Notes under the pieces: model-generated | The model's database searches: none | What the model was told of the DNA's origin: nothing | The model's input: only the letters and a program-made list of their open reading frames with translations | Shown: in pieces, positions 1,514-23,017 of the stretch | Layout: the number at the start of each line of letters is the position of its first letter | Numbering within the stretch: the stretch's first letter is position 1 | Position numbers and translations under genes: made by a program | Assembly: GCA_934725305.1 (NCBI GenBank) | Contig: CAKVBA010000043.1 | Location: 1-23,085 of the forward strand | Direction of reading: 5' to 3' | DNA from: an uncultured Parabacteroides sp. | Lineage (GTDB): Bacteria; Bacteroidota; Bacteroidia; Bacteroidales; Tannerellaceae | DNA: 23,085 nt

Positions 1514-1825
1514 GGAATTTCAACACTTTTACACAATAGCCATTAACAGCTGATTTTACGAGAAGAACTATACAGATTAAAGCAATTTACGGTTATAAAG
1601 AAACATATTAACACTATTCCATATATTTATGCTACATATTTCAATCATATCGGTATATAATATTTCACTAACACAATACATGTTTAATAACATACTTCCT
1701 GTTTTTCTCACCTATTTAAACCTTATTTTATATAAATACACGGTATATATATTCACATATATTTAATAAATACACGCATCTTATATTAACAGTACATCAA
1801 AACTTATTATTCCGCCCAAACTATG

Positions 1826-1941
1826 AAATTTAAGCCTTGCCCATAAATACAAGGGAAAGACTGTAAAAGAGAATGATTGTATAATTATGCACTATTCACC
1901 TCCTTTATGCATCCGGATAGGATAAAAGTGTTAGTTTCTCC
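1826..1941. repeat. Upstream block shared with 7273-7391 (copy 1)
   Basis: Aligns along its length with the region upstream of the next susC. Shared segments include TTGCCCAT(A/G)AATACAAG, GTATAATTATGCAC, TTTATGCA(T/C)CC and ATAAAAG followed by TAGTT. It lies about 420 bp before the coding start. It may be a regulatory element, an RNA gene or residue of duplication; no function is recognisable. Confidence 0.55.
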
Positions 1942-2035
1942 ACTGGAAACAGATAACAACTCTATTTTGGGAAAAGTCCGACATCTTCTTCCGGACAGCT
2001 TGACGGAACTTTTGGGAGAAAGTCAATTGACTTTC
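1925..2035. repeat. Degenerate ~22-bp-period quasi-palindrome cluster
   Basis: Short dyads separated by A- or T-rich spacers, for example TAGTTTCTCC near 1932, TAACAACTCT near 1954, GTCCGACA near 1976 and GCTTGACG near 1998, plus the perfect palindrome AGTCAATTGACT (2021-2032). The first four keep 22-bp phase but match each other weakly. It sits just beyond the susD terminator, like the clearer arrays at 7376-7436 and 13308-13505. Confidence 0.35.
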
Positions 2036-2076
2036 TTTTTCACTGACGCCTAAAAAGCAGTGTATCATCACAACTT

Positions 2077-2116
2077 AAGGGGCTGAATCAAAACAACCGC
2101 TTTGATTCAGCCCCTT
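2077..2116 (-). terminator. Terminator hairpin of the susC/susD operon
   Basis: A perfect 16-bp inverted repeat (2077-2092 with 2101-2116; core GGGGCTGAATCAAA) with an 8-nt loop, 80 bp past the susD stop. It is symmetric enough to work in both directions. Its sequence is nearly the same as the terminators at 7478-7518 and 13688-13724. Confidence 0.8.
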
Positions 2117-2195
2117 TTATAATGTACCAGTATTAGTAAATACAACGTTACTGTTTACAATACTGACGCACCGTCCTGCTATTCACATAGCACTA

Positions 2196-3676: not shown

Positions 3677-6600
3677 TTAGAATGTAAGATTAACCGTAAA
3701 ACCAAAAGTACGAGCAGAAGCAGCCTGACCGCCTTCAGAGAAACTATAAGAAGCACCACCCATTTCTGACGGGTCCATATTAGGAACGGCAGAATAGATC
3801 AACCATGGATTCTGGGCAACGAAAGAGACACTGGCCTTTTTCACGCCACAATTCATACGCTGCAAGAAGGCTGACGGCACGTCATAACCTATTGACAATT
3901 CGCGCATCTTCAGATAGCTTGCATCATATACATAGTCTTCCCAAACCAAGCTCTTACGGCTTTGGTAGTAATAGTTGGCATCCACGTAAGCTGTTGTCGG
4001 AGTATATGTACCATCGGCATTCTGAACCACACCGTCAACACGTACACCACCACCGTTTGCCACGCTCGAACGAATCGGGTTACCCTTGTCATTCAATCCG
4101 GTTGTTGATGCAAGCAAACCTGAACCTTCACCAAACATATTGGTTGCAGAGGCGATACATCCACCTACCTGGAAGTCGAAAGAAGCACCTAAGTGGAAGT
4201 CTTTGAAACGAAGAGTTGTAGAGAAACCACCGGTCAAGTCGGGCTGGATATTACCCAACTCTTCCTGAGCTGTTGTATTCAATAACGGAGCATACTGTCC
4301 CAACGGATGGTTAGCATTGCCACGGTCGCTCAAGATTATACGGCCTTGCGGATCTCTCTTCCAAGTAGAACCACGGATCACACCGATAGGTTCGCCCACT
4401 TCGGCATAAGAATATACGCGAGAACTCCAAGATCTCCAATAGATCTGATACTTATCAACACCCTCTGCCAACTCTTCCAAGGTGTTGCGGTTGCGAGAAA
4501 CGTTGGCATTCAATTCCCATGTCCAATTCTTCAAGTCGATGATGCGTCCACCCAAAGAGAGCTCAATACCACGGTTGCGAATCAGACCGGCATTCATCTT
4601 ACGGCTTCTGTAACCACTGGCCGGTGTTGTATTCACATTAATAATCTGGTCTTTTGAATCTCTGTTATAGAAGTTGAAATCACCCCAGAAGCGATCATTA
4701 AACAGACGGAACTCTGTACCGATTTCGTAAGAGGTAGAGATTGTCGGTTTAATATAAGGATCACGCAAGTTGGTGTCATTCCACATATTTGACAACTGTC
4801 CATATTTAATCAATGAGCTACCACTCTTTACGCGATAGATTGGATAGACATTATACGGACTCATAGTAGAACCTACCTGAGCCATAGAAGCACGCAATTT
4901 CCAGAAGCTCAACCAAGGAGTAGAATCTTTAAGCCAGTTGCTGGCGATGGCAGCAACAGAAGCACCTCCATACAGGAAGCTGTTCTTATCGGGATGCAAT
5001 GTTGAAGTCCAGTCGTTACGCAATGAGAAGTCAACATAATAGGTATTGTCCCAACCCACAGTTGCTGTACCATATACACTTCTATCGTGCTGCTTGCGGA
5101 CAGTTGAGCTACCACCCGGCAGACCGGAAGAGGCGGCTGTATTGAAGAAACCATTCATAAAGATACCGTCACGAGTAAAGGCATCTACCGTATCCAAGTC
5201 ATACTGACGGTCTTCAAAGAAGAGGGCTGCATCTAATGACAATTTCTCATTCAGGAAATGATCGTTCCATGTAACTCTGCCCTGTGTCTGAATATCAGAT
5301 AACTGGCTTTGTGTCTGGCTATATTCTGAAACCTGACCCAAAATATTCTGCGGCAGGCGAAGTTCATATTTATAATTACGCAAGTTTCCATTGACGCGGA
5401 TACCGGCTTTCAGGTTTTTCCAAATCTGCAACTCTGCATCACCGCTGAACACATGCCACTGATAAGTTTCGTCGCGGCTAACCTGTTCAAACAAAGCGTA
5501 TGGGTTGTCATGGAACTGAGGATTCAAGTTTGTCGGGCTGACAATATTCCAAGAACGGAAGGTACCGTCGGGGCGTATATAGTTTTCCTTCAGATCTTTC
5601 AGATTAACGTTGGTATGTCCAAACTGCTGATAAGAATACAACGCGTTACCCAATGACTGATAACCTTCTGCTGCTGCATTGTGGTTACGGCGATAGGTAT
5701 ATTTATAGTCTAATGACACACGCAAGCGATCGATGGGCTTGAAAGAGGTACGTGCCGACAAGAAGCGACGTGATGCACTACTGTTCGGAGTAATACCGGT
5801 ACGTGATACATTAGAGAAAGAAATACGGCTGGCATGATCCTTTTCCGACTTAGCAAAAGCCACATTGGTTGTATTGCTCAAACCGGTTCTGAACAGATCA
5901 TACAAATCCATTTGAGGTGTCCACTTGGCTGTCTGACCAAAACGTGGATCGGTGTTGTCCCATGCATACCAAGGTGCATACGTACGTCCATCCAACTTAG
6001 GACCCCAGCTGGCATCATTGGCATAGTCGTAGTAGCTCACGCCGTCCATCTGGGCCAAATAGGGAGCATGTATTTCGGAGTCATATTTGAAGACCGGCAT
6101 TTCTGCATCGGCTCCCATATAACCGCCACCATACTCTTTCTGCATATCATAAGGAATATAAGCTTTATCCCAAGCTATCGTGTGGCTCACGGTAATCTCG
6201 CTGTAAGAACCCTTTTCGCCACCTTTTGTTGTAATGATGATGGCACCATTACCACCGCGTGCACCATACAGAGCGGTTGCTGCCGGACCTTTCAACACAT
6301 TGACGGATGCTACATCGTCCATGTTCAAAGCCATATTATTAGAGATAACACCATCTATCACATAAATAGGTTCGTTACCGCCGGCTTCTGTCAATGAAGA
6401 TGTACCACGAAGCACAATCTTACCGGGATCGAAGGTTGCACCTGAAGAACCTAAGAAACGTACACCTGATACTTTACCCACCAAGGCATTGTTCAAATCT
6501 GTTTGGCGTGCCTGTGACAAATCATCTGCCTTAATCTGCTGTGTGGCGTAACCCAATGATTTCTGCTTACGGGTCAAACCCTGAGCCGTTACAACCACCT

Positions 6601-6901
6601 CTTCCAAATCTTGTGTGTCAGACTGCAAAATCACCTTGACGTGAGACTTGACCGCAACGTCTTGTGAGTTCATGCCGACATAAGAAATCTGCAAGATTTT
6701 TCCATCTTCCGGAACCTCAAGAATAAACTTACCATCGAGATCCGTTACTGTACCGACCGTAGTTCCCTTCACAACAATGGAAGCTCCGATAACCGGTTGA
6801 CCATCATCACCCGTAACAGTACCTGTGACTTTCTTTGACTGGGCCATCACACTTGTACCCACACAAAGACATAGCATCGCTAATGTTAACTTTTTCATCA
6901 T
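3677..6901 (-). CDS. SusC/RagA-type TonB-linked outer membrane transporter
   Basis: Complete SusC transporter of about 1074 residues. It pairs with the SusD-like lipoprotein downstream and moves bound substrate across the outer membrane using TonB energy. Order: signal peptide (MMKKLTLAMLCLCV...VMAQ), regulatory-like beta domain (about 23-105; KGTTVGTVTDLDG, LQISYVGM), EEVVVTAQGLTRKQKSLGYA, plug (about 120-250; EPIYVIDGV, LKGPAATALYGARGGNGAIIITT), then a 22-strand barrel ending in NLTF with the C-terminal Phe used for barrel assembly. The frame stays open to 7027, but that extension covers the promoter at 6988-7017, so it is not translated. ATGATG at 6901/6898 matches the other susC starts; ATG at 6916 is an alternative. 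The plug-linker motif differs from the other two SusCs, matching its different SusD partner. Confidence 0.93.
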   Translation of the reverse strand: MMKKLTLAMLCLCVGTSVMAQSKKVTGTVTGDDGQPVIGASIVVKGTTVGTVTDLDGKFILEVPEDGKILQISYVGMNSQDVAVKSHVKVILQSDTQDLEEVVVTAQGLTRKQKSLGYATQQIKADDLSQARQTDLNNALVGKVSGVRFLGSSGATFDPGKIVLRGTSSLTEAGGNEPIYVIDGVISNNMALNMDDVASVNVLKGPAATALYGARGGNGAIIITTKGGEKGSYSEITVSHTIAWDKAYIPYDMQKEYGGGYMGADAEMPVFKYDSEIHAPYLAQMDGVSYYDYANDASWGPKLDGRTYAPWYAWDNTDPRFGQTAKWTPQMDLYDLFRTGLSNTTNVAFAKSEKDHASRISFSNVSRTGITPNSSASRRFLSARTSFKPIDRLRVSLDYKYTYRRNHNAAAEGYQSLGNALYSYQQFGHTNVNLKDLKENYIRPDGTFRSWNIVSPTNLNPQFHDNPYALFEQVSRDETYQWHVFSGDAELQIWKNLKAGIRVNGNLRNYKYELRLPQNILGQVSEYSQTQSQLSDIQTQGRVTWNDHFLNEKLSLDAALFFEDRQYDLDTVDAFTRDGIFMNGFFNTAASSGLPGGSSTVRKQHDRSVYGTATVGWDNTYYVDFSLRNDWTSTLHPDKNSFLYGGASVAAIASNWLKDSTPWLSFWKLRASMAQVGSTMSPYNVYPIYRVKSGSSLIKYGQLSNMWNDTNLRDPYIKPTISTSYEIGTEFRLFNDRFWGDFNFYNRDSKDQIINVNTTPASGYRSRKMNAGLIRNRGIELSLGGRIIDLKNWTWELNANVSRNRNTLEELAEGVDKYQIYWRSWSSRVYSYAEVGEPIGVIRGSTWKRDPQGRIILSDRGNANHPLGQYAPLLNTTAQEELGNIQPDLTGGFSTTLRFKDFHLGASFDFQVGGCIASATNMFGEGSGLLASTTGLNDKGNPIRSSVANGGGVRVDGVVQNADGTYTPTTAYVDANYYYQSRKSLVWEDYVYDASYLKMRELSIGYDVPSAFLQRMNCGVKKASVSFVAQNPWLIYSAVPNMDPSEMGGASYSFSEGGQAASARTFGFTVNLTF

Positions 6902-6935
6902 AGACACTTTTTTCATTAATAATAGTATAGATTTA
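6896..6935 (-). promoter_or_regulatory. Conserved leader/start segment of the second susC
   Basis: Minus-strand leader beginning AATCTATACTATTATTAA and ending AGTGTCTATGATG, nearly identical to 1402-1441. It also decides the start: ATGATG keeps the same distance to the conserved leader in all three susC genes. Confidence 0.5.
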
Positions 6936-6987
6936 AAATACGTCTTCCGCTTTCTGTAATGCGAATCGTTTTGATTAACATGTTTTG

Positions 6988-7017
6988 CAAACATAATGAA
7001 TAATTTACAAAAGCAAT
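6988..7017 (-). promoter_or_regulatory. Bacteroides-type promoter of the second susC
   Basis: Minus strand: TATGTTTG (6988-6995) as the -7 element, then 18 bp, then ATTG (7014-7017) as the -33 element. The predicted start near 6982 gives a leader of about 80 nt. It lies inside the long open frame, which argues against any start upstream of 6982. Confidence 0.55.
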
Positions 7018-7272
7018 GGAAAATCAAGGTTTTTTATACAACTGCAAAGCACACGCCCAAAACCGAACAGATAAGAATAATTTTGATTAATATAGTAACA
7101 ACTATATACTATATCAATCACTTATATTTTATTTCTTAATTATTTCATCACAGACAACGCATCTGCATAATACATGTTTGACAACACATTCCCCGTTTTA
7201 TTGCCAAAAAACTCTATTTTATAACAATATCATTCATATATAATGGGAAAATATTCTTCTTCCTGAACAATG

Positions 7273-7391
7273 ATATTTAGGCTTTGCCCATGAATACAAG
7301 TGAAAGATTACCGGGGAAAATGCTGTATAATTATGCACCGTTTATTATATTTATGCACCCTTATAGATAGAATAAAAGGGATAGTTACTCC
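7273..7391. repeat. Upstream block shared with 1826-1941 (copy 2)
   Basis: Partner of 1826-1941. Both contain TTTGCCCAT or TTGCCCAT, GTATAATTATGCAC, a second TTTATGCAYCC about 20 bp later and an ATAAAAG segment leading into the 22-bp units. It lies about 400 bp before the susC start. Confidence 0.55.
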
Positions 7392-7436
7392 GTCCGGATT
7401 GGGTAGGAACCCATTTTCTACCGGATAATGACCCAT
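7376..7436. repeat. Three-unit 22-bp periodic array
   Basis: The cores TAGTTACT, TAGGAACC and TAATGACC start at 7382, 7404 and 7426, exactly 22 bp apart, with AT-rich spacers (CCATTTT). The middle unit, GGGTAGGAACCC, is nearly identical to units in the long array at 13308-13505. It lies 42 bp beyond the susD terminator. Confidence 0.6.
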
Positions 7437-7477
7437 TTTGAGTGTATATATATAAATGTATATTCTGACAAACGTTT

Positions 7478-7518
7478 AAAGGGCTGCATCAAAACAGTTG
7501 TTTTTGACACAGCCCTTT
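7478..7518 (-). terminator. Terminator of the first susC/susD operon
   Basis: A 17-bp stem (7478-7494 with 7502-7518) around a 7-nt loop. Read from the minus strand every position pairs, two as G-U wobbles; from the plus strand those two become mismatches. This supports minus-strand use, after the susD gene that ends at 7559. The sequence belongs to the AGGGCTG...ATCAAAA family also seen at 2077 and 13688. Confidence 0.8.
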
Positions 7519-7558
7519 TATTATAATGAACCCTAAGGTTTCGCTCTACAAAAATGTA

Positions 7559-9058: not shown

Positions 9059-12000
9059 TTAAAATACTAAGTTAACACCAAATGACAAAGCACGGATTGA
9101 TGAATAGTTAGCATCGGAATAACCATAGGTGTACTGACGCGGGTCCATACCTTTACGTTTTGAGAACAATGCTACGTTATCTGCAGAAACATAGGCGCGA
9201 GCACTACTTGCAGCAATTACCTTCATCCAGCTTTTCGGGAATGTATAACCCAAAGCAAGGTTACGGATATTAAAGTAAGAAGCATTGATAAAGAAACGTG
9301 AAGACTGCTGGTTGCTATTCTGAGCACCATCCATAATAGGCACATCAGTATGTTTGTTTTCCGGAGTCCAAGCATTCAAGATATCTTTGTGCCAGTTTGA
9401 ACCAAAGTCACTACCTGAGTGCATAAAGCTTGAATACATGCTATCATATACCTTACCACCAATCTGGAAGCTTGTACCGATAGCGAAGTCAAATCCTTTG
9501 TATGCAAAGTCCATTGACAAACCGCCCTGGAATTTAGGCAATGTTGAGCCCTGAGCATATTTGCTTGCCTTTGTATAGTCTTCTGTCACTTCACGACCTA
9601 CCACGTTGCCGTTTTCGTCTTTTACGTTCATATACCACTGAGCAGCACCTGTTTCAGGATTAACGCCAGCTGATTCGTATGTATAGATATCATAGATTGA
9701 ACCACCTTCCATCAAACGGAACAATGAAGCTGCACCATGAACGATACCTTCTTTTCTGTTTTCTTCGGGCAAGCTGGTAATCTTGTTCTTATAGTGTGTA
9801 CCGTTGAAAGATACATTCCATACAAATTCTTCGTTCTGGATCGGGCTACCGCTGATAGTGAATTCAACACCCTGGTTTCTCATATCCAACAAGTTCATCG
9901 GAATATAAGAGATACCTGATGAGATAGGATAAGGCTTGTTATACAACATATCAGAAGTGCTCTTCAAGAAGTATTCCATTTCAAACTTCAAACGGTTGTG
10001 GAACAGGTCTGCTTCCAAACCAATGTTTAAGTTCTTACTCTTTTCCCAAGTCAGATCTTTGTTACCACGATACGTTTCAACCACTGAGAATGCACCGTTG
10101 TTGTTACTTACTGAATACTGCTTCATATAAGGCTGATAAACCAAGCCACCGCCCTGATACAAGATACCATCGTTACCCTGAGTACCGTAACTTGCTTTCA
10201 ACTTCAAGTTGGTCAACCATTCAGAATATTTCTGCATAAACTCTTCCTGAGTCATACGCCAAGAACCACCTAATGACCAGAATGTACCACGACGATGATC
10301 GGGGTGAAACTTAGAAGATTCGTCGGTACGGATACTTGCTGACAAATAGTATTTGTTTTCGAAGTCATAGTTTACACGGCCAAAGAAGCTCTCCATGCTA
10401 TGTTCTTCTTTCTGAGAATACATATCAGCCATAGTGATAGCATTGTTGTATTCCGGGTTACCGATAATAAAGAAGTTATACTTGTGAGTCATCAAATTGC
10501 TCAAGCTGTAAGAATAAGACTCATGACCGGCCATTACTTCAACATTGTGACGGTCAAAATTCTTGTTGTAGCTCAACACCTGGTTGGCTGTCAATGTTTC
10601 AGAACGCAAGTTATATTTATAGGTACGACCATTTACATTCTTAGCATCACCATACAACTGGTTCATGTGGTCTGTACGAACCTGGTTCATCAAGTCATAA
10701 CCCAAGTTGGCAGTAGCTTTCAAGCCTTCCAGAATATTAATGGTAATAGTACCACGACCGTTGAAGTTATCGTTCAATGTCTGGTGAACATCCAAATCAG
10801 AAGTGGCAGCCACGTTCTGGTTACTGAAACCACCCATACGAGTACTATATGTACCGTCACCAAAGTCGAACAGAGGTTTGCCGTTTTCGTCACGCTGCAA
10901 AACGCCGTTTTCGTCATAAGCATACACCGGATAGATCGGAGCGATTCTCTGTGTAAACATAAATGCGTTAGAATAATGACCCAAGTTTGCACCGTCAGCC
11001 TGACCCGCATTCTTTTCGCTACGAGCATAAGAAATGTTTCCGCTTAAGTCGATGTACTGGTTCACCTTGTGGTTGATGTTAGCACGTGTAGAGATACGTT
11101 CGAAGTCGGTGTTACGCAAGATACCTTCATCCTTCAAATAACCTACTGACAAGAAGTGAGTAGTGCTCTTGCTACCACCCTGCAAGCTCAAGTTATATTC
11201 CTGACGCATGCCATTGTGCAATGCAGCTTCAGCCCAGTCGTCATGGTGACGCAAAGGAGCAGATGTCAAAACTCCTTCCGGAGAAACCATGGCATTGTTA
11301 GCCACACCGATGAACGGATTGTAACCGATAGCACCAATCAGGTTTTCAGAAGCCTTTTCGCCAGAAGTCTGATTTGCCAACACATTCCATGCTGTCAATA
11401 CATACTGTCTCGGATCCTTCATGATGTCATATTCGGGAACGGCACGAGTGTTCACACCCCAACGAGCATCAACAGTTACTTTGGTTTTGTCGGCCATACC
11501 CTTCTTTGTTGTGATCATAACCACACCGTTAGCAGCACGTGAACCATACAACGCAGCAGAAGCAGCATCCTTCAAAATAGACATGCTCTCAATATCTGAC
11601 GGGTTCAAGGCATTAACAGATTCTTCGTCATAAGGCATACCGTCAACTACATACAATGGAGCAGATGATGCACTGAAAGAACCGATACCACGGATACGGA
11701 TCTTAGCGTTTTCACCCGGCTGACCGCTTGTGCTGATAACAGATACACCGGCAGCAGCACCTTCCAACGCTTTAGACACAGAAGATACCTGCATTTTAGC
11801 AATCTTGTCACCTCTTAAAGCTGTAGCAGAACCAGTAAAGGAAGATTTCTTAGCTGTACCGTAAGCAACAACCATTACTTCATCCAATTCAGTCTGTGCG
11901 GTAGTCATCACGACCTTCATTACATCCTGAACCGGTTCATCTTTTGTCATCATACCGACATAAGAGAATTGCAACGTTTTTGTTGATGTGGGAATCTCCA

Positions 12001-12187
12001 AAGAGAATACACCGTCGAAATCAGTCACTGTACCAGTGGTTGTACCTTTCACGACTACAGATGCACCAATAATCGGTTGATCATCTTCTGCCGAGATAAC
12101 AGTACCAGTGACTCTCCTCGTCTGAGCGAGCACCATACTGATTCCTACAAAAAGGAACAGCATCGCTAATGTTAACTTTTTCATCAT
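9059..12187 (-). CDS. SusC/RagA-type TonB-linked outer membrane transporter
   Basis: Complete SusC transporter of 1042 residues, first gene of an operon with the classical SusD that follows. Signal peptide (MMKKLTLAMLFLFV...VLAQ), regulatory-like domain (about 25-110), a DEVMVVAYGTAKKSSFTG segment leading into the plug (about 115-230; RIRGIGSFSASSAPLYVVDG, LKDAASAALYGSRAANGVVMIT), then a full barrel ending in GVNLVF. The first ~120 residues closely match the truncated SusC at 49-1407, but the two then diverge (GSATALRGDKI versus GSAKAVSSEDI). The frame opens at a GTG (12193); the ATGATG at 12187/12184 is the likelier start. The leader may be structured (12243-12344). No regulator or enzyme gene adjoins it. 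Confidence 0.94.
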   Translation of the reverse strand: MMKKLTLAMLFLFVGISMVLAQTRRVTGTVISAEDDQPIIGASVVVKGTTTGTVTDFDGVFSLEIPTSTKTLQFSYVGMMTKDEPVQDVMKVVMTTAQTELDEVMVVAYGTAKKSSFTGSATALRGDKIAKMQVSSVSKALEGAAAGVSVISTSGQPGENAKIRIRGIGSFSASSAPLYVVDGMPYDEESVNALNPSDIESMSILKDAASAALYGSRAANGVVMITTKKGMADKTKVTVDARWGVNTRAVPEYDIMKDPRQYVLTAWNVLANQTSGEKASENLIGAIGYNPFIGVANNAMVSPEGVLTSAPLRHHDDWAEAALHNGMRQEYNLSLQGGSKSTTHFLSVGYLKDEGILRNTDFERISTRANINHKVNQYIDLSGNISYARSEKNAGQADGANLGHYSNAFMFTQRIAPIYPVYAYDENGVLQRDENGKPLFDFGDGTYSTRMGGFSNQNVAATSDLDVHQTLNDNFNGRGTITINILEGLKATANLGYDLMNQVRTDHMNQLYGDAKNVNGRTYKYNLRSETLTANQVLSYNKNFDRHNVEVMAGHESYSYSLSNLMTHKYNFFIIGNPEYNNAITMADMYSQKEEHSMESFFGRVNYDFENKYYLSASIRTDESSKFHPDHRRGTFWSLGGSWRMTQEEFMQKYSEWLTNLKLKASYGTQGNDGILYQGGGLVYQPYMKQYSVSNNNGAFSVVETYRGNKDLTWEKSKNLNIGLEADLFHNRLKFEMEYFLKSTSDMLYNKPYPISSGISYIPMNLLDMRNQGVEFTISGSPIQNEEFVWNVSFNGTHYKNKITSLPEENRKEGIVHGAASLFRLMEGGSIYDIYTYESAGVNPETGAAQWYMNVKDENGNVVGREVTEDYTKASKYAQGSTLPKFQGGLSMDFAYKGFDFAIGTSFQIGGKVYDSMYSSFMHSGSDFGSNWHKDILNAWTPENKHTDVPIMDGAQNSNQQSSRFFINASYFNIRNLALGYTFPKSWMKVIAASSARAYVSADNVALFSKRKGMDPRQYTYGYSDANYSSIRALSFGVNLVF

Positions 12188-12242
12188 AGACACTCTTTTA
12201 ATTAATGGATATATTTGTTATTAGTCTTTATCAATACTAATC

Positions 12243-12386: not shown

Positions 12387-12540
12387 GATAAAATAAACAC
12401 CATTTCTACTTTTAGCACTGTTTTTCCAATCTATTCACTAACTTTAATAAATAATATCACTTAAACGAGAATTAGCCCTAATAACCAACCTTTTTTCACA
12501 TATCACTTTTGTAATCATCTAATCTCTTCTTGCTTTACCG

Positions 12541-12556
12541 CAAATCGGTCATCAGA
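12541..12556 (-). repeat. Dispersed 18-bp motif, inverted copy
   Basis: CAAATCGGTCATCAGA is the reverse complement of the TCTAATGACCGATTTGGG motif at 13129-13146 with one change. Related copies lie at 13605-13622 and 22372-22388. Confidence 0.45.
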
Positions 12557-13012: not shown

Positions 13013-13128
13013 ACCTTCCATCATATACATTAATATATATAGCCACCCGCAGGCGGAAGCAAGATGCCAAAAGAAGTGCTGACAAGAGTTGGAAAGAATA
13101 AAAATATTCAGCTGCTTACTTTTTTCGC

Positions 13129-13146
13129 TCTAATGACCGATTTGGG
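13129..13146 (+). repeat. Dispersed 18-bp motif TCTAATGACCGATTTGGG
   Basis: Reference copy. A direct near-copy is at 13605-13622 (one change), and inverted copies are at 22372-22388 and 12541-12556. Here and at 22372 it stands near the AATATGCRCCGAGAGATAG element. Confidence 0.5.
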
Positions 13147-13152
13147 ATAAAT

Positions 13153-13196
13153 GAATAGTCTATTATCTGAATCAAATATGCGCCGAGAGATAGTTA
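13153..13196. repeat. Palindromic repeat element (copy at 13153)
   Basis: Shares AATAGTCTAT at its left end, CTGAATCAAATATGCGCC in its centre and GAGAGATAG at its right end with 22486-22528. The flanks can pair (CTAT..TCT with AGAGATAG, small internal loop), giving a hairpin with a conserved loop. A similar TATGCACC..GATAG core occurs in the shared blocks at 1826 and 7273. Confidence 0.5.
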
Positions 13197-13214: not shown

Positions 13215-13295
13215 TATTTTTCACTAAAAGCGGTAACGGATCCGGCAGAAGCGACGGGCGATTTCGCCGGACTTGACAGACGAATCTGTCTCGGC
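13215..13295 (-). ncRNA. Hairpin cluster, possible structured RNA
   Basis: A G+C-richer island in AT-rich surroundings. From the minus strand, GACAGA-UUCG-UCUGUC forms a perfect 6-bp stem with a UUCG loop (13277-13292), followed three bases later by UCCGGC...GCCGGA (13239-13269) enclosing GGCG-AAAU-CGCC. No known RNA family is recognised. It could equally be part of the neighbouring repeat structure. Confidence 0.3.
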
Positions 13296-13307
13296 CCAAA
13301 CACCCTG

Positions 13308-13505
13308 AAAAGGGGTTATAGACTATCTTTCAAGAGTCTATAGACTTTTCGGAATTAGTCTATAGACTTTTCTCAAAAAGGGTATAGACTTTTTTGAAAA
13401 TGGGTAGGCACTCCGTTCGAACGGAATAACTACTCCGTTTGGATTGGGTAGGCACCCATTTTTGACGGAATAACTACTCCTTTTTGATCGGATTAGTAGC
13501 CCCTT
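13308..13505. repeat. Nine-unit, 22-bp phased quasi-palindrome array
   Basis: The unit cores begin at 13317, 13339, 13361, 13383, 13405, 13427, 13449, 13471 and 13493, a strict 22-bp step. There are three core types: TATAGACT (within AGTCTATAGACT; units 1-4), TAGGCAC(T/C)CC (units 5 and 7) and TAACTACTCC or a variant (units 6, 8, 9). Each core is near-palindromic, and the spacers are A/T-rich, some palindromic themselves (CCGTTCGAACGG). Not a CRISPR array, since there are no unique spacers. The 22-bp step is about two helical turns, so bound proteins would sit on one DNA face. Any protein reading frame across it looks incidental to the repeat. Confidence 0.8.
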
Positions 13506-13604
13506 TTCCGCCTGTTGACTTATTGTATTTTTATGGATGATAAATAGGCCTTCAACACAGAGCCATTGCAATCTGCTCAAAACAAGCACCAACAAGAATC
13601 GTAA

Positions 13605-13622
13605 TCTAATGATCGATTTGGG
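13605..13622 (+). repeat. Dispersed 18-bp motif, direct copy
   Basis: TCTAATGATCGATTTGGG, one base different from 13129-13146 and in the same orientation. It lies 66 bp from the barrel-protein terminator. Confidence 0.5.
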
Positions 13623-13778: not shown

Positions 13779-14261
13779 TTAGAAACGATAAGCAAAACCA
13801 ATATTGAAGACAGCCTGGTCAAAATCGCTTACCAACTGATAACGGAATTCGCAGTTCATTGTCCAGCTTGGAGCCAATTTAAAATCTGCTCCTACACCCA
13901 GATTCAGACCTACACGACATACATTGTCATCAAGATACGGTTTATCAGCATCAAACATCCAATCAGCAAATGTAAAACCAAGCAACGGATACAACTTCAC
14001 ATCACGTCCTACCGGACACAAATAGTGGAAGTTCATATTGATATCTAACATGCTGACACCGTCATTCTTGAAGAAATAATTAAACGAAGGCTCTAAACGA
14101 ATCGGACTGGTAATGTTATACTGATACTTCAAACCAAAACCAACGCTCTCAATCTCTGTACCATAACTCAAGCCAAAACCAATCGCTTGTCTTCCCTTTT
14201 GTGCATAAGCTGAAGCAAATGTCACAACCAATAAGCTTAATAAGATAAACGCTCTTTTCAT
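13779..14261 (-). CDS. Small outer-membrane beta-barrel protein
   Basis: A 160-residue protein with a clear signal peptide (MKRAFILLSLLVVTFASAYA, cleaved before QKGRQ). The mature part alternates polar and hydrophobic residues in about eight strands (AIGFGLSYG, VGFGLKYQYN, IRLEPSFNYFF, VKLYPLLGFTF and so on) and ends in GFAYRF, with the C-terminal aromatic residue used for barrel insertion. This fits the OmpA/OmpW-like barrel families (outer membrane protein beta-barrel domain). Single gene with its own promoter and terminator. Role unknown; such proteins are structural, adhesive or porin-like. Confidence 0.8.
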   Translation of the reverse strand: MKRAFILLSLLVVTFASAYAQKGRQAIGFGLSYGTEIESVGFGLKYQYNITSPIRLEPSFNYFFKNDGVSMLDINMNFHYLCPVGRDVKLYPLLGFTFADWMFDADKPYLDDNVCRVGLNLGVGADFKLAPSWTMNCEFRYQLVSDFDQAVFNIGFAYRF

Positions 14262-22325: not shown

Positions 22326-22370
22326 AAAGGGTTCAAGTAACTTATCGGCTCTGTTACTCGAACTCTTTAT
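22326..22370 (+). terminator. Intrinsic terminator after the DUF3843-like gene
   Basis: AAAGGGTTCAAGTAAC (22326-22341) pairs with GTTACTCGAACTCTTT (22353-22368) with one mismatch and one G-U pair, then TATTCC. It lies 12 bp after the stop codon and 2 bp before the inverted 18-bp motif. Confidence 0.75.
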
Positions 22371-22371
22371 T

Positions 22372-22388
22372 CCAAATCGGTCATTAGA
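22372..22388 (-). repeat. Dispersed 18-bp motif, inverted copy beside a terminator
   Basis: CCAAATCGGTCATTAGA is the exact reverse complement of 17 bases of the motif at 13129-13146. It directly abuts the terminator of the upstream gene. Both copies are followed or preceded by a TTTTTTCG tract. Confidence 0.55.
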
Positions 22389-22485
22389 GATTTTTTCGTG
22401 CAAAAAGAAAGCGAATAGCAACTTATAGTCATCATTATAGCATCTGTATAACAAACACAACACGTTGTTTTCAGCCTGTTTATAT

Positions 22486-22528
22486 AATAGTCTATCCTCT
22501 CTGAATTAAATATGCACCGAGAGATAGT
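22486..22528. repeat. Palindromic repeat element (copy at 22486)
   Basis: AATAGTCTATCCTCTC then TGAATTAAATATGCACC then GAGAGATAGT. CTATCCTCTC pairs with GAGAGATAG (9 bp, one bulge). It matches 13153-13196 in loop and right arm, while the left arm differs in a way that keeps pairing. It lies just outside the transposase remnant. Confidence 0.55.
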
Positions 22529-22564: not shown

Positions 22565-23017
22565 TCATTTGGGCGCGTCAAAAAGCGACTTGATTGCGAG
22601 GTGCTTCTCTGTAAGGAAGAGCGTTTTCGTAAAGTAAGTGCCGTTCTCAGGCATTTTTATCCTGATTGTGGTTATGGTTTTAGCGGCATCAAGCACATGA
22701 TCGACACTCATGTCAATCTTGTTTATGCCTATAAGTCGCTCCAGTTCTTTATATACTTTATAAGCGATGAAACATATACAGATGTGGGCTTCAATCCTCC
22801 TTTCCGTGAAGTGAAATATCGGACGCATCTCCAATGTTTCTTTTGAGATACGGAAGGCACGTTCCACCACCCATAAACCATGATATTGGGCAATGACACG
22901 CTCGGCATCAAGGCCTGTATTGGTGATATATCCTTTCAGACCATCCCACTTGCAGTCCTCGACAATCTTCTCCTCGCTGATGGAAACCTCTATGTCCTTG
23001 CTGATTTCAACCCAACT
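22565..23017 (-). pseudogene. C-terminal remnant of an IS4/IS1634-type transposase
   Basis: About 150 codons read without interruption on the minus strand: EISKDIEVSISEEKIVEDC, WDGLKGYITNTGL, AQYHGLWVVERAFRISK, RIEAHICICFIAYKVYKELE. This is the end of a DDE transposase, and WVVERAFRISK carries the catalytic glutamate. The two aspartates and everything N-terminal are missing: an in-frame TGA (23018-23020) precedes the fragment, and the bases beyond do not continue the protein. Full members are about three times longer. The piece is either a decayed insertion sequence or one cut by another insertion or an assembly edge. An isolated GTG at 22870 is not a real start. Confidence 0.8.

What the first reader, a model, noticed from the sequence alone, without database searches (positions are those of the whole stretch)
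13308..13505. Nine quasi-palindromic units in exact 22-bp phase
Seen directly: cores start at 13317 and then every 22 bp to 13493 without drift, although core sequences alternate between three types (AGTCTATAGACT, GGGTAGGCACCC, GGAATAACTACTCC). Phase kept while sequence varies suggests selection for spacing, as in operator or iteron arrays bound by a protein on one DNA face, or in a string of small RNA hairpins. It is not coding, not CRISPR and not at a recognisable origin. It has partial relatives at 7376-7436 and 1925-2035. I know of no described element with this pattern, but I could not search.
Basis: partly seen in the sequence, partly recalled or inferred. Interest (0 to 1): 0.75.

Follow-up and report, generated by a model that had tools for sequence, protein, structure and literature searches.

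The report
Hairpin repeat arrays with 22-base beat
Between its genes this gut bacterium carries a string of roughly mirror-symmetric 22-letter DNA units; related bacteria carry many such strings with other letters but the same beat, and there single units have flipped over in place, which points to DNA-copying errors at hairpins rather than to a control switch.

Summary
The 22-bp phase is real: lag-22 identity 0.619, reached by 0 of 5000 dinucleotide shuffles at any lag 12-66. The window lies near Parabacteroides; its genome is not held. In 1.94 Mb of Parabacteroides DNA, intergenic tandem arrays fall at lags 21/22/23 in 1/24/12 cases, against 10 at the other 55 lags from 12 to 69. Unit sequences differ from locus to locus. 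32 of 47 arrays are palindromic at p<=0.05. 48 arrays sit in gap classes as intergenic base counts predict (31/11/6 against 30.4/11.5/6.1), so operator or terminator roles are not supported as the general rule. Between two close species, 4 inversion-like windows occur in 10 arrays (about 0.07 expected), and 4 of 12 arrays differ by whole units: the known footprint of template switching at inverted repeats, plus slippage. In another genome such arrays lie inside MITE-like elements with IS982-type ends. The closest published relative is BrickBuilt of Porphyromonas gingivalis (23-nt repeats). Why the period is 22-23 bp is unexplained. Unit flipping was not shown for the window's own array.

The parts
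13299..13516 (.). Whole array; its two ends (13299-13318 and 13497-13516) are inverted repeats of each other
   Evidence: Lag-22 identity; end pair 80% complementary; DNA fold of 13290-13520 z -4.83, 0 of 200 shuffles as stable
13317..13514 (.). Nine rows of 22 bp, in three core types
   Evidence: Row listing; TRF rows
13335..13346 (.). Perfect palindrome AGTCTATAGACT (centre 13340.5)
13357..13368 (.). Perfect palindrome AGTCTATAGACT (centre 13362.5)
13413..13424 (.). Perfect palindrome CCGTTCGAACGG in a spacer (centre 13418.5)
7375..7441 (+). Related short array upstream of the SusC-like gene 3677-7027
   Evidence: 78% identity to 13420-13487; lag 22 = 0.54 over 7376-7436
1925..2035 (+). Weaker related array upstream of the TonB-plug ORF 49-1413
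   Evidence: lag 22 = 0.44, 0 of 2000 shuffles
12534..12556 (-). Transposon-end-like repeat TTTACCGCAAATCGGTCATCAGA, inverted relative to the next two
13128..13151 (+). Transposon-end-like repeat CTCTAATGACCGATTTGGGATAAA left of the array
   Evidence: the same sequence matches G017, G029 and G041
13605..13622 (+). Transposon-end-like repeat TCTAATGATCGATTTGGG right of the array, same orientation as the left one
9059..12193 (-). SusC-like TonB-dependent receptor gene downstream of the array
   Evidence: Pfam Plug and CarbopepD_reg_2
13779..14261 (-). Outer-membrane beta-barrel protein gene; the array lies 3' of it
   Evidence: Pfam OMP_b-brl

Best explanation
The array is a hairpin-forming minisatellite, one of many in intergenic DNA of Parabacteroides and some other Bacteroidales. 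Each unit is a quasi-palindrome of 22 bp (21-23 in the class). Shown in relatives: whole units are gained or lost between close species; single units appear as their reverse complement in place; arms can change together. Inferred: flips and arm matching come from DNA-polymerase template switching at the hairpins, which inverts spacers and homogenises arms, so that palindromes are regenerated without selection for a protein or RNA; unit number changes by slippage or unequal exchange; some arrays spread as passengers of MITE-like elements. Extended from relatives without direct test: that the window's own array is kept the same way. Not explained: why the period is 22-23 bp whatever the sequence.
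For: Lags 21/22/23 hold 1/24/12 intergenic arrays against 10 at the other 55 lags in 1.936 Mb of Parabacteroides DNA; 0 arrays in 150 kb of E. coli K-12. Palindromicity against period-keeping permutations: 32 of 47 arrays at p<=0.05, window p=0.01. G043 against G005: 4 inversion-like windows in 10 arrays, about 0.07 expected, none in flanks (alignments). Unit pairs that match better inverted within one array: 27 of 57 arrays, 5.6 expected. Differences of 22, 23, 23 and 44 bp inside 4 of 12 orthologous arrays. Matched C-to-T and G-to-A changes on two sides of a stem (221610). Placement as intergenic base counts predict. No clear sense-strand preference. Template switching is known to homogenise arms and invert spacers (PMC8604942, abstract and passages) and to create and keep hairpins (PMC8794818, abstract).
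Against: 8 of the 10 G043/G005 pairs show no inversion window, and three of the four windows lie in one array. 15 of 47 arrays are not significantly palindromic; a consensus-based test gave only 11 of 37 at p<=0.05. The window array has no inverted-better unit pair. Other orthologous arrays differ by lengths that are not unit multiples (for example 36 bp at the edge of locus I, 31 bp in 378566, 1 bp in IV). Generic template switching and slippage do not predict one narrow period. Arrays are somewhat rarer near start codons than random (16 against 22.1), so placement is not wholly neutral. The E. coli control is small.
Confidence: 0.55

Rival explanations
1. MITE passenger: the window array is a minisatellite carried by a transposon-derived element, as in BrickBuilt, and owes its dispersal to a transposase. 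This can hold together with the best explanation; as the main cause it is a rival.
For: In G007, 15 aligned elements share a leader and 22-bp modules, and L043, L047 and L049 keep recognisable versions of both ends CCCGTTGGCGGAATTAAT / ATTAATTCCGCCAACGGG. Outside G007 only those ends match, and in G052 they bound an element with an IS982-family transposase. Transposon-end-like repeats surround the window array.
Against: In G001, G043 and G005 the 180-bp flanks of different arrays are mostly unrelated apart from orthologues and a few pairs. The two end-like repeats directly beside the window array point the same way, which is not a simple MITE.
Confidence: 0.2
2. Operator or iteron array: a protein binds the dyads in phase and controls the SusC operon or replication.
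For: All three phased stretches of the window lie upstream of TonB-dependent receptor genes; the dyads are phased.
Against: Related arrays differ in sequence at nearly every locus looked at, are placed like intergenic DNA at large, and some are missing at orthologous sites. No replication gene among the 16 window proteins scanned.
Confidence: 0.1
3. RNA role: the array is transcribed as a string of small hairpins (terminators, 3' UTR stabiliser or decoy RNA).
For: Strong predicted folding (mean z -5.0 over 57 arrays; window RNA z -7.0 on + and -4.9 on -); T runs follow several window hairpins on the + strand (read directly).
Against: No enrichment in convergent gaps (6 against 6.1) nor near stop codons (20 against 18.7); sense strand folds better in only 18 of 31; the window's T runs are on the strand opposite to both neighbouring genes; no Rfam match.
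Confidence: 0.1

Closest known systems
BrickBuilt minisatellite-MITE of Porphyromonas gingivalis (PMC4596501; abstract, sections 5 and 8, part 1 of section 7 and passages seen)
   Different: BrickBuilt has one 23-nt unit family with IS5-type ends and a non-repetitive leader and tail, reported by its authors in P. gingivalis and P. gulae only. Here the period is mostly 22, unit sequences differ from locus to locus within one genome, most G001/G043 arrays share no leader or tail, and units invert in place. The paper also mentions unlocated 22-nt repeats of strain W83.
Template-switch mutation at quasi-palindromes (PMC8604942, abstract and passages; PMC8794818, outline and abstract)
   Same: Spacer inversion and arm homogenisation in inverted repeats match the unit flips and matched arm changes.
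   Different: Described there for single inverted repeats in yeast genes and for RNA stems; the passages seen do not treat phased tandem arrays ('tandem' had 0 occurrences in PMC8604942).
REP elements and RAYT transposases (PMC3733652, passages)
   Same: Short intergenic palindromes in many copies.
   Different: REPs are families with one consensus, tagged GTAG or CGTC, often linked to RAYT genes; here no RAYT domain was found in G005 and G008, which carry arrays.
CRISPR arrays (recalled)
   Same: Regular spacing; some arrays keep a core and vary the stretch between cores (L129, L045).
   Different: Period 22, imperfect units that flip, no Cas domain among the 16 window proteins scanned.

Membership tests
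BrickBuilt MITE | Tandem 23-nt unit | tested here: not met
   Window period is 22; 23-bp arrays exist in relatives
BrickBuilt MITE | Intergenic tandem repeats able to form hairpins | tested here: met
BrickBuilt MITE | Leader and tail with IS5-type terminal inverted repeats | tested here: inconclusive
   Other, inverted and same-orientation, end-like repeats lie around the array; the window genome is not held, so no copies to compare
REP/RAYT element | Dedicated Y1 tyrosine transposase in the genome | tested here: not met
   PF01797 found in 5 of 8 genomes, not in G003, G005, G008; G005 and G008 carry arrays. Not testable in the window's own genome
CRISPR array | cas genes nearby | tested here: not met
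   No Cas domain in 16 window proteins scanned against Pfam; distal cas genes not testable
Operator/iteron array | One conserved binding sequence repeated in phase | tested here: not met
   Three core types within the array and differing units between arrays
Operator/iteron array | A bound protein | not testable with these tools
   Needs a binding experiment
Template-switching quasi-palindrome | In-place inversion between orthologues | tested here: met
   Met in 2 of 10 orthologous G043/G005 arrays (4 windows, about 0.07 expected); not testable for the window array itself, which has no orthologue in hand

The most novel reading that the evidence does not exclude
Bacteroidales own a dedicated activity with a 22-23 bp ruler that builds and reshuffles tandem hairpins in intergenic DNA whatever their sequence, adding, removing or inverting one unit at a time, so that the arrays are products of an unknown enzyme system rather than of generic slippage and template switching.
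Probability: 0.1. Interest if true: 0.85.

Novelty: new variant of a known kind. Interest (0 to 1): 0.55.

Why it matters
It turns one odd array into a countable class: 37 arrays in 1.936 Mb of Parabacteroides DNA, about one per 52 kb (orthologues in three species counted apart). Compensating changes in hairpins are usually read as proof of a functional RNA or protein site; the unit flips suggest that mutation alone can keep such pairing. The narrow period across unrelated sequences is a sharp, testable puzzle about how Bacteroidales copy or repair hairpin DNA. The arrays are also candidate variable-number markers for telling strains apart.

Tried and rejected
Operator/iteron, RNA/terminator, CRISPR and REP/RAYT readings: reasons in the rival list and membership test. 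The consensus-based palindrome test was weak (11 of 37 at p<=0.05 for lags 21-23, 2 of 10 for other lags); I then used a column-permutation test (32 of 47); both are reported. Rfam, tRNA, plasmids and phages gave no match. A viral-contig scan for one 15-base piece gave 34 contigs, which I take as chance without a test; they served as a further control (352 kb: lags mostly multiples of three, none at 22, 2 at 21, 1 at 23). The array as DNA query found nothing in P. gordonii; in 38 Parabacteroides genomes it found end-like repeats in G017, G029 and G041 and weak array matches in G019 and G025 (at most 17 candidates per genome were scored). Synteny of the window locus: in L001-L007 the DUF308 gene is found in all seven, the OMP gene in none, a SusC match only in L001, so no empty-site test for the window. 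The first orthologue BLAST failed by a wrong database name and was rerun.

Dropped rows and biases: arrays less than half intergenic, or of low complexity, were dropped before counting (number not printed); unfiltered counts are and spread over more lags, in G019 above all. In one search two of 12 orthologue pairs (136494, 322443) were left out because the arrays did not align. Part of the G043 and the G005 stretches were chosen by synteny to a G001 stretch holding two arrays. The G007 stretches were chosen by motif hits and are not in the count; L110 and L134, fetched for array hits, were left out of it. The array sets (60; 57; 47; 48; 57) overlap, use different cut-offs, and contain orthologues and, G007 or L007 arrays, so they are not independent.

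Literature: BrickBuilt paper: abstract, sections 5 and 8, part 1 of 2 of section 7, passages. PMC5771137, PMC8604942 and PMC3733652: passages only (the abstract among them for PMC8604942). PMC8794818: outline and abstract. Searches for such arrays: searches returned no paper; some searches returned papers whose listings do not describe such arrays outside P. gingivalis; led to BrickBuilt. This is no proof of absence in print.

Full report
What was checked. The region 13308-13505 repeats with a 22-bp beat far beyond chance (0.619 identity at lag 22; 0 of 5000 shuffles at any lag 12-66). Tandem Repeats Finder sees the same period. Nine rows can be written from 13317 to 13493. Two perfect 12-bp palindromes lie on unit cores and one in a spacer.

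Where it lies. The eight loci that carry a relative of the window's DUF308 protein are five Parabacteroides, two 'Bacteroides sp.' and a Tannerellaceae MAG. The window's own genome is not held. The array sits in a 1.6-kb gap, 3' of an outer-membrane protein gene and about 1.1 kb upstream of a SusC-like gene. The gap also holds repeats that look like transposon ends; a further copy at 22366-22389 lies near a fragment of an IS1634-family transposase (22565-22870; 82.2 bits, under the model's cut-off of 100).

A class, not a single case. In the window plus the eight loci (178.6 kb, not chosen by arrays), lag 22 gave 7 arrays; otherwise lags 40 and 41 (1 and 2) and the multiples 44 and 66 appeared, and five shuffles gave none. 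The L007 genome (G007) has 57 copies of one core within one mismatch against 4 for the reversed control pattern, many of them 22, 44 or 66 bp apart; the other seven genomes have 1 to 10 against 2 to 19. In stretches of Parabacteroides G001 (400 kb), G043 (800 kb), G005 (126 kb), G019 (380 kb) and a mixed set (230 kb), intergenic arrays count 1, 24 and 12 at lags 21, 22 and 23, and 10 at the other 55 lags from 12 to 69. Three of the ten are one similar lag-39 consensus in three genomes, and one (46) is twice 23. E. coli K-12 (150 kb) gave none. Units of different arrays of one genome look unrelated, for instance AATTTTGAGCTAGCTCAAAATT, CTGCTTATAACTGTCGGCAAGC and ATTATAATGGGTATTATTCCCC in G001.

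Hairpins. Against permutations that keep the period but scramble the unit, 32 of 47 arrays are palindromic at p<=0.05 (window p=0.01) and 15 are not. Mean RNA folding z is -5.0 over 57 arrays; of 31 arrays between co-directional genes the sense strand folds better in 18. The window array folds as DNA with z -4.83.

Position. 48 arrays lie in tandem, divergent and convergent gaps 31, 11 and 6 times; base counts predict 30.4, 11.5 and 6.1. Arrays within 40 bp of a stop: 20 against 18.7; within 60 bp of a start: 16 against 22.1. This speaks against terminators and promoter-bound operators as the general role. Genes here are simple open-reading-frame calls, not curated annotation.

How they change. 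G043 and G005 are close (flanks 85-99% identical in 11 of 12 orthologous array pairs). In one array, units of one species match the reverse complement of the other: over 24 bp 5 mismatches direct and 1 inverted (TTGCTCACAATTGTCAACAA against TTGTTGACAATTATGAGCAA within it), over 18 bp 4 and 1, over 12 bp 3 and 1; a second array has 3 and 1 over 18 bp. These are 4 windows in 10 arrays against about 0.07 expected from point mutation, none in flanks; 8 arrays have none. Comparisons with the more distant G001 give 2 windows in one pair (0.047 expected) and 1 each in two pairs (0.087 and 0.05 expected). Within arrays, 27 of 57 hold a unit pair that matches better inverted (5.6 expected); the window array is not among them. 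Four of 12 orthologous arrays differ by 22, 23, 23 or 44 bp inside the array; others differ by lengths that are not unit multiples or do not align. One pair shows matched C-to-T and G-to-A changes on two sides of a stem (221610). At some loci the gap between aligned flanks is much shorter in another species: 210 bp against 35, 383 against 110, 214 against 91.

Mobile carriers. In G007, 15 aligned elements (of 28 arrays taken from stretches chosen by motif hits) share a leader and 22-bp modules of up to three sequence types; three keep recognisable versions of both ends. Of 81 genomes of the family, 10 match (G007 included), and outside G007 only the ends match; at most 7 candidates per genome were scored. 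In G052 the ends bound an element of about 1 kb whose 288-aa protein is an IS982-family transposase. So arrays can lie in transposon-derived elements. In G001, G043 and G005 flanks of different arrays are mostly unrelated, so this is not the general origin.

Mechanism. Template switching between inverted repeats homogenises arms and inverts spacers (PMC8604942, abstract and passages) and can make and keep hairpins (PMC8794818, abstract). This explains flips and matched arms without selection. Gain and loss of whole units would be slippage or unequal exchange (inference). Neither explains why the period is 22-23 bp in unrelated sequences; that is the open point, and the reason why a dedicated activity stays on the table as the bold reading.

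Known relatives. BrickBuilt in P. [quoted passage not shown] its authors report it in P. gingivalis and P. gulae, and mention unlocated 22-nt repeats in strain W83 (PMC4596501). The present class is wider, mostly 22 bp, diverse in sequence within a genome, and shows unit inversion. I file it as a new variant of a known kind.

Noticed in passing
window 22366-22389 and 22565-22870: C-terminal fragment of an IS1634-family transposase (82.2 bits, model cut-off 100) near an end-like repeat that recurs at 12534-12556, 13128-13151 and 13605-13622; G017 has 7 matches to it, two of them in inverted pairs about 166 bp apart (L097, L098).
   Followed up: partly
window 22486-22528 and 13154-13194: A 43-bp stretch is 88% identical between the two intergenic regions, outside the end-like repeats.
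   Followed up: no
window 1672-2128 and 7166-7532: The upstream regions of two TonB-dependent receptor ORFs share several blocks (72-80% identity), including a hairpin AAAGGGCTG...CAGCCCTTT just 3' of each susD-like gene, as if whole susCD loci had been duplicated with their upstream arrays.
   Followed up: no
L003 18140-18422 and L008 9251-9609: Tandem arrays with lag 41 (0.93 and 0.82 identity); the BrickBuilt paper mentions 41-nt repeats in another P. gingivalis MITE. No sequence comparison made.
   Followed up: no
L066 about 11541, L069 about 2249, G043 contig C8 about 378566: Three arrays of different unit sequence begin right after genes whose last residues read GEDDRPVIE (read by eye), as if arrays tended to form or diverge quickly behind this gene family.
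   Followed up: no
G043 contig C8 80863 and 189664: Two arrays with the same core and homologous flanks (84% and 93%): a dispersed copy within one genome.
   Followed up: no
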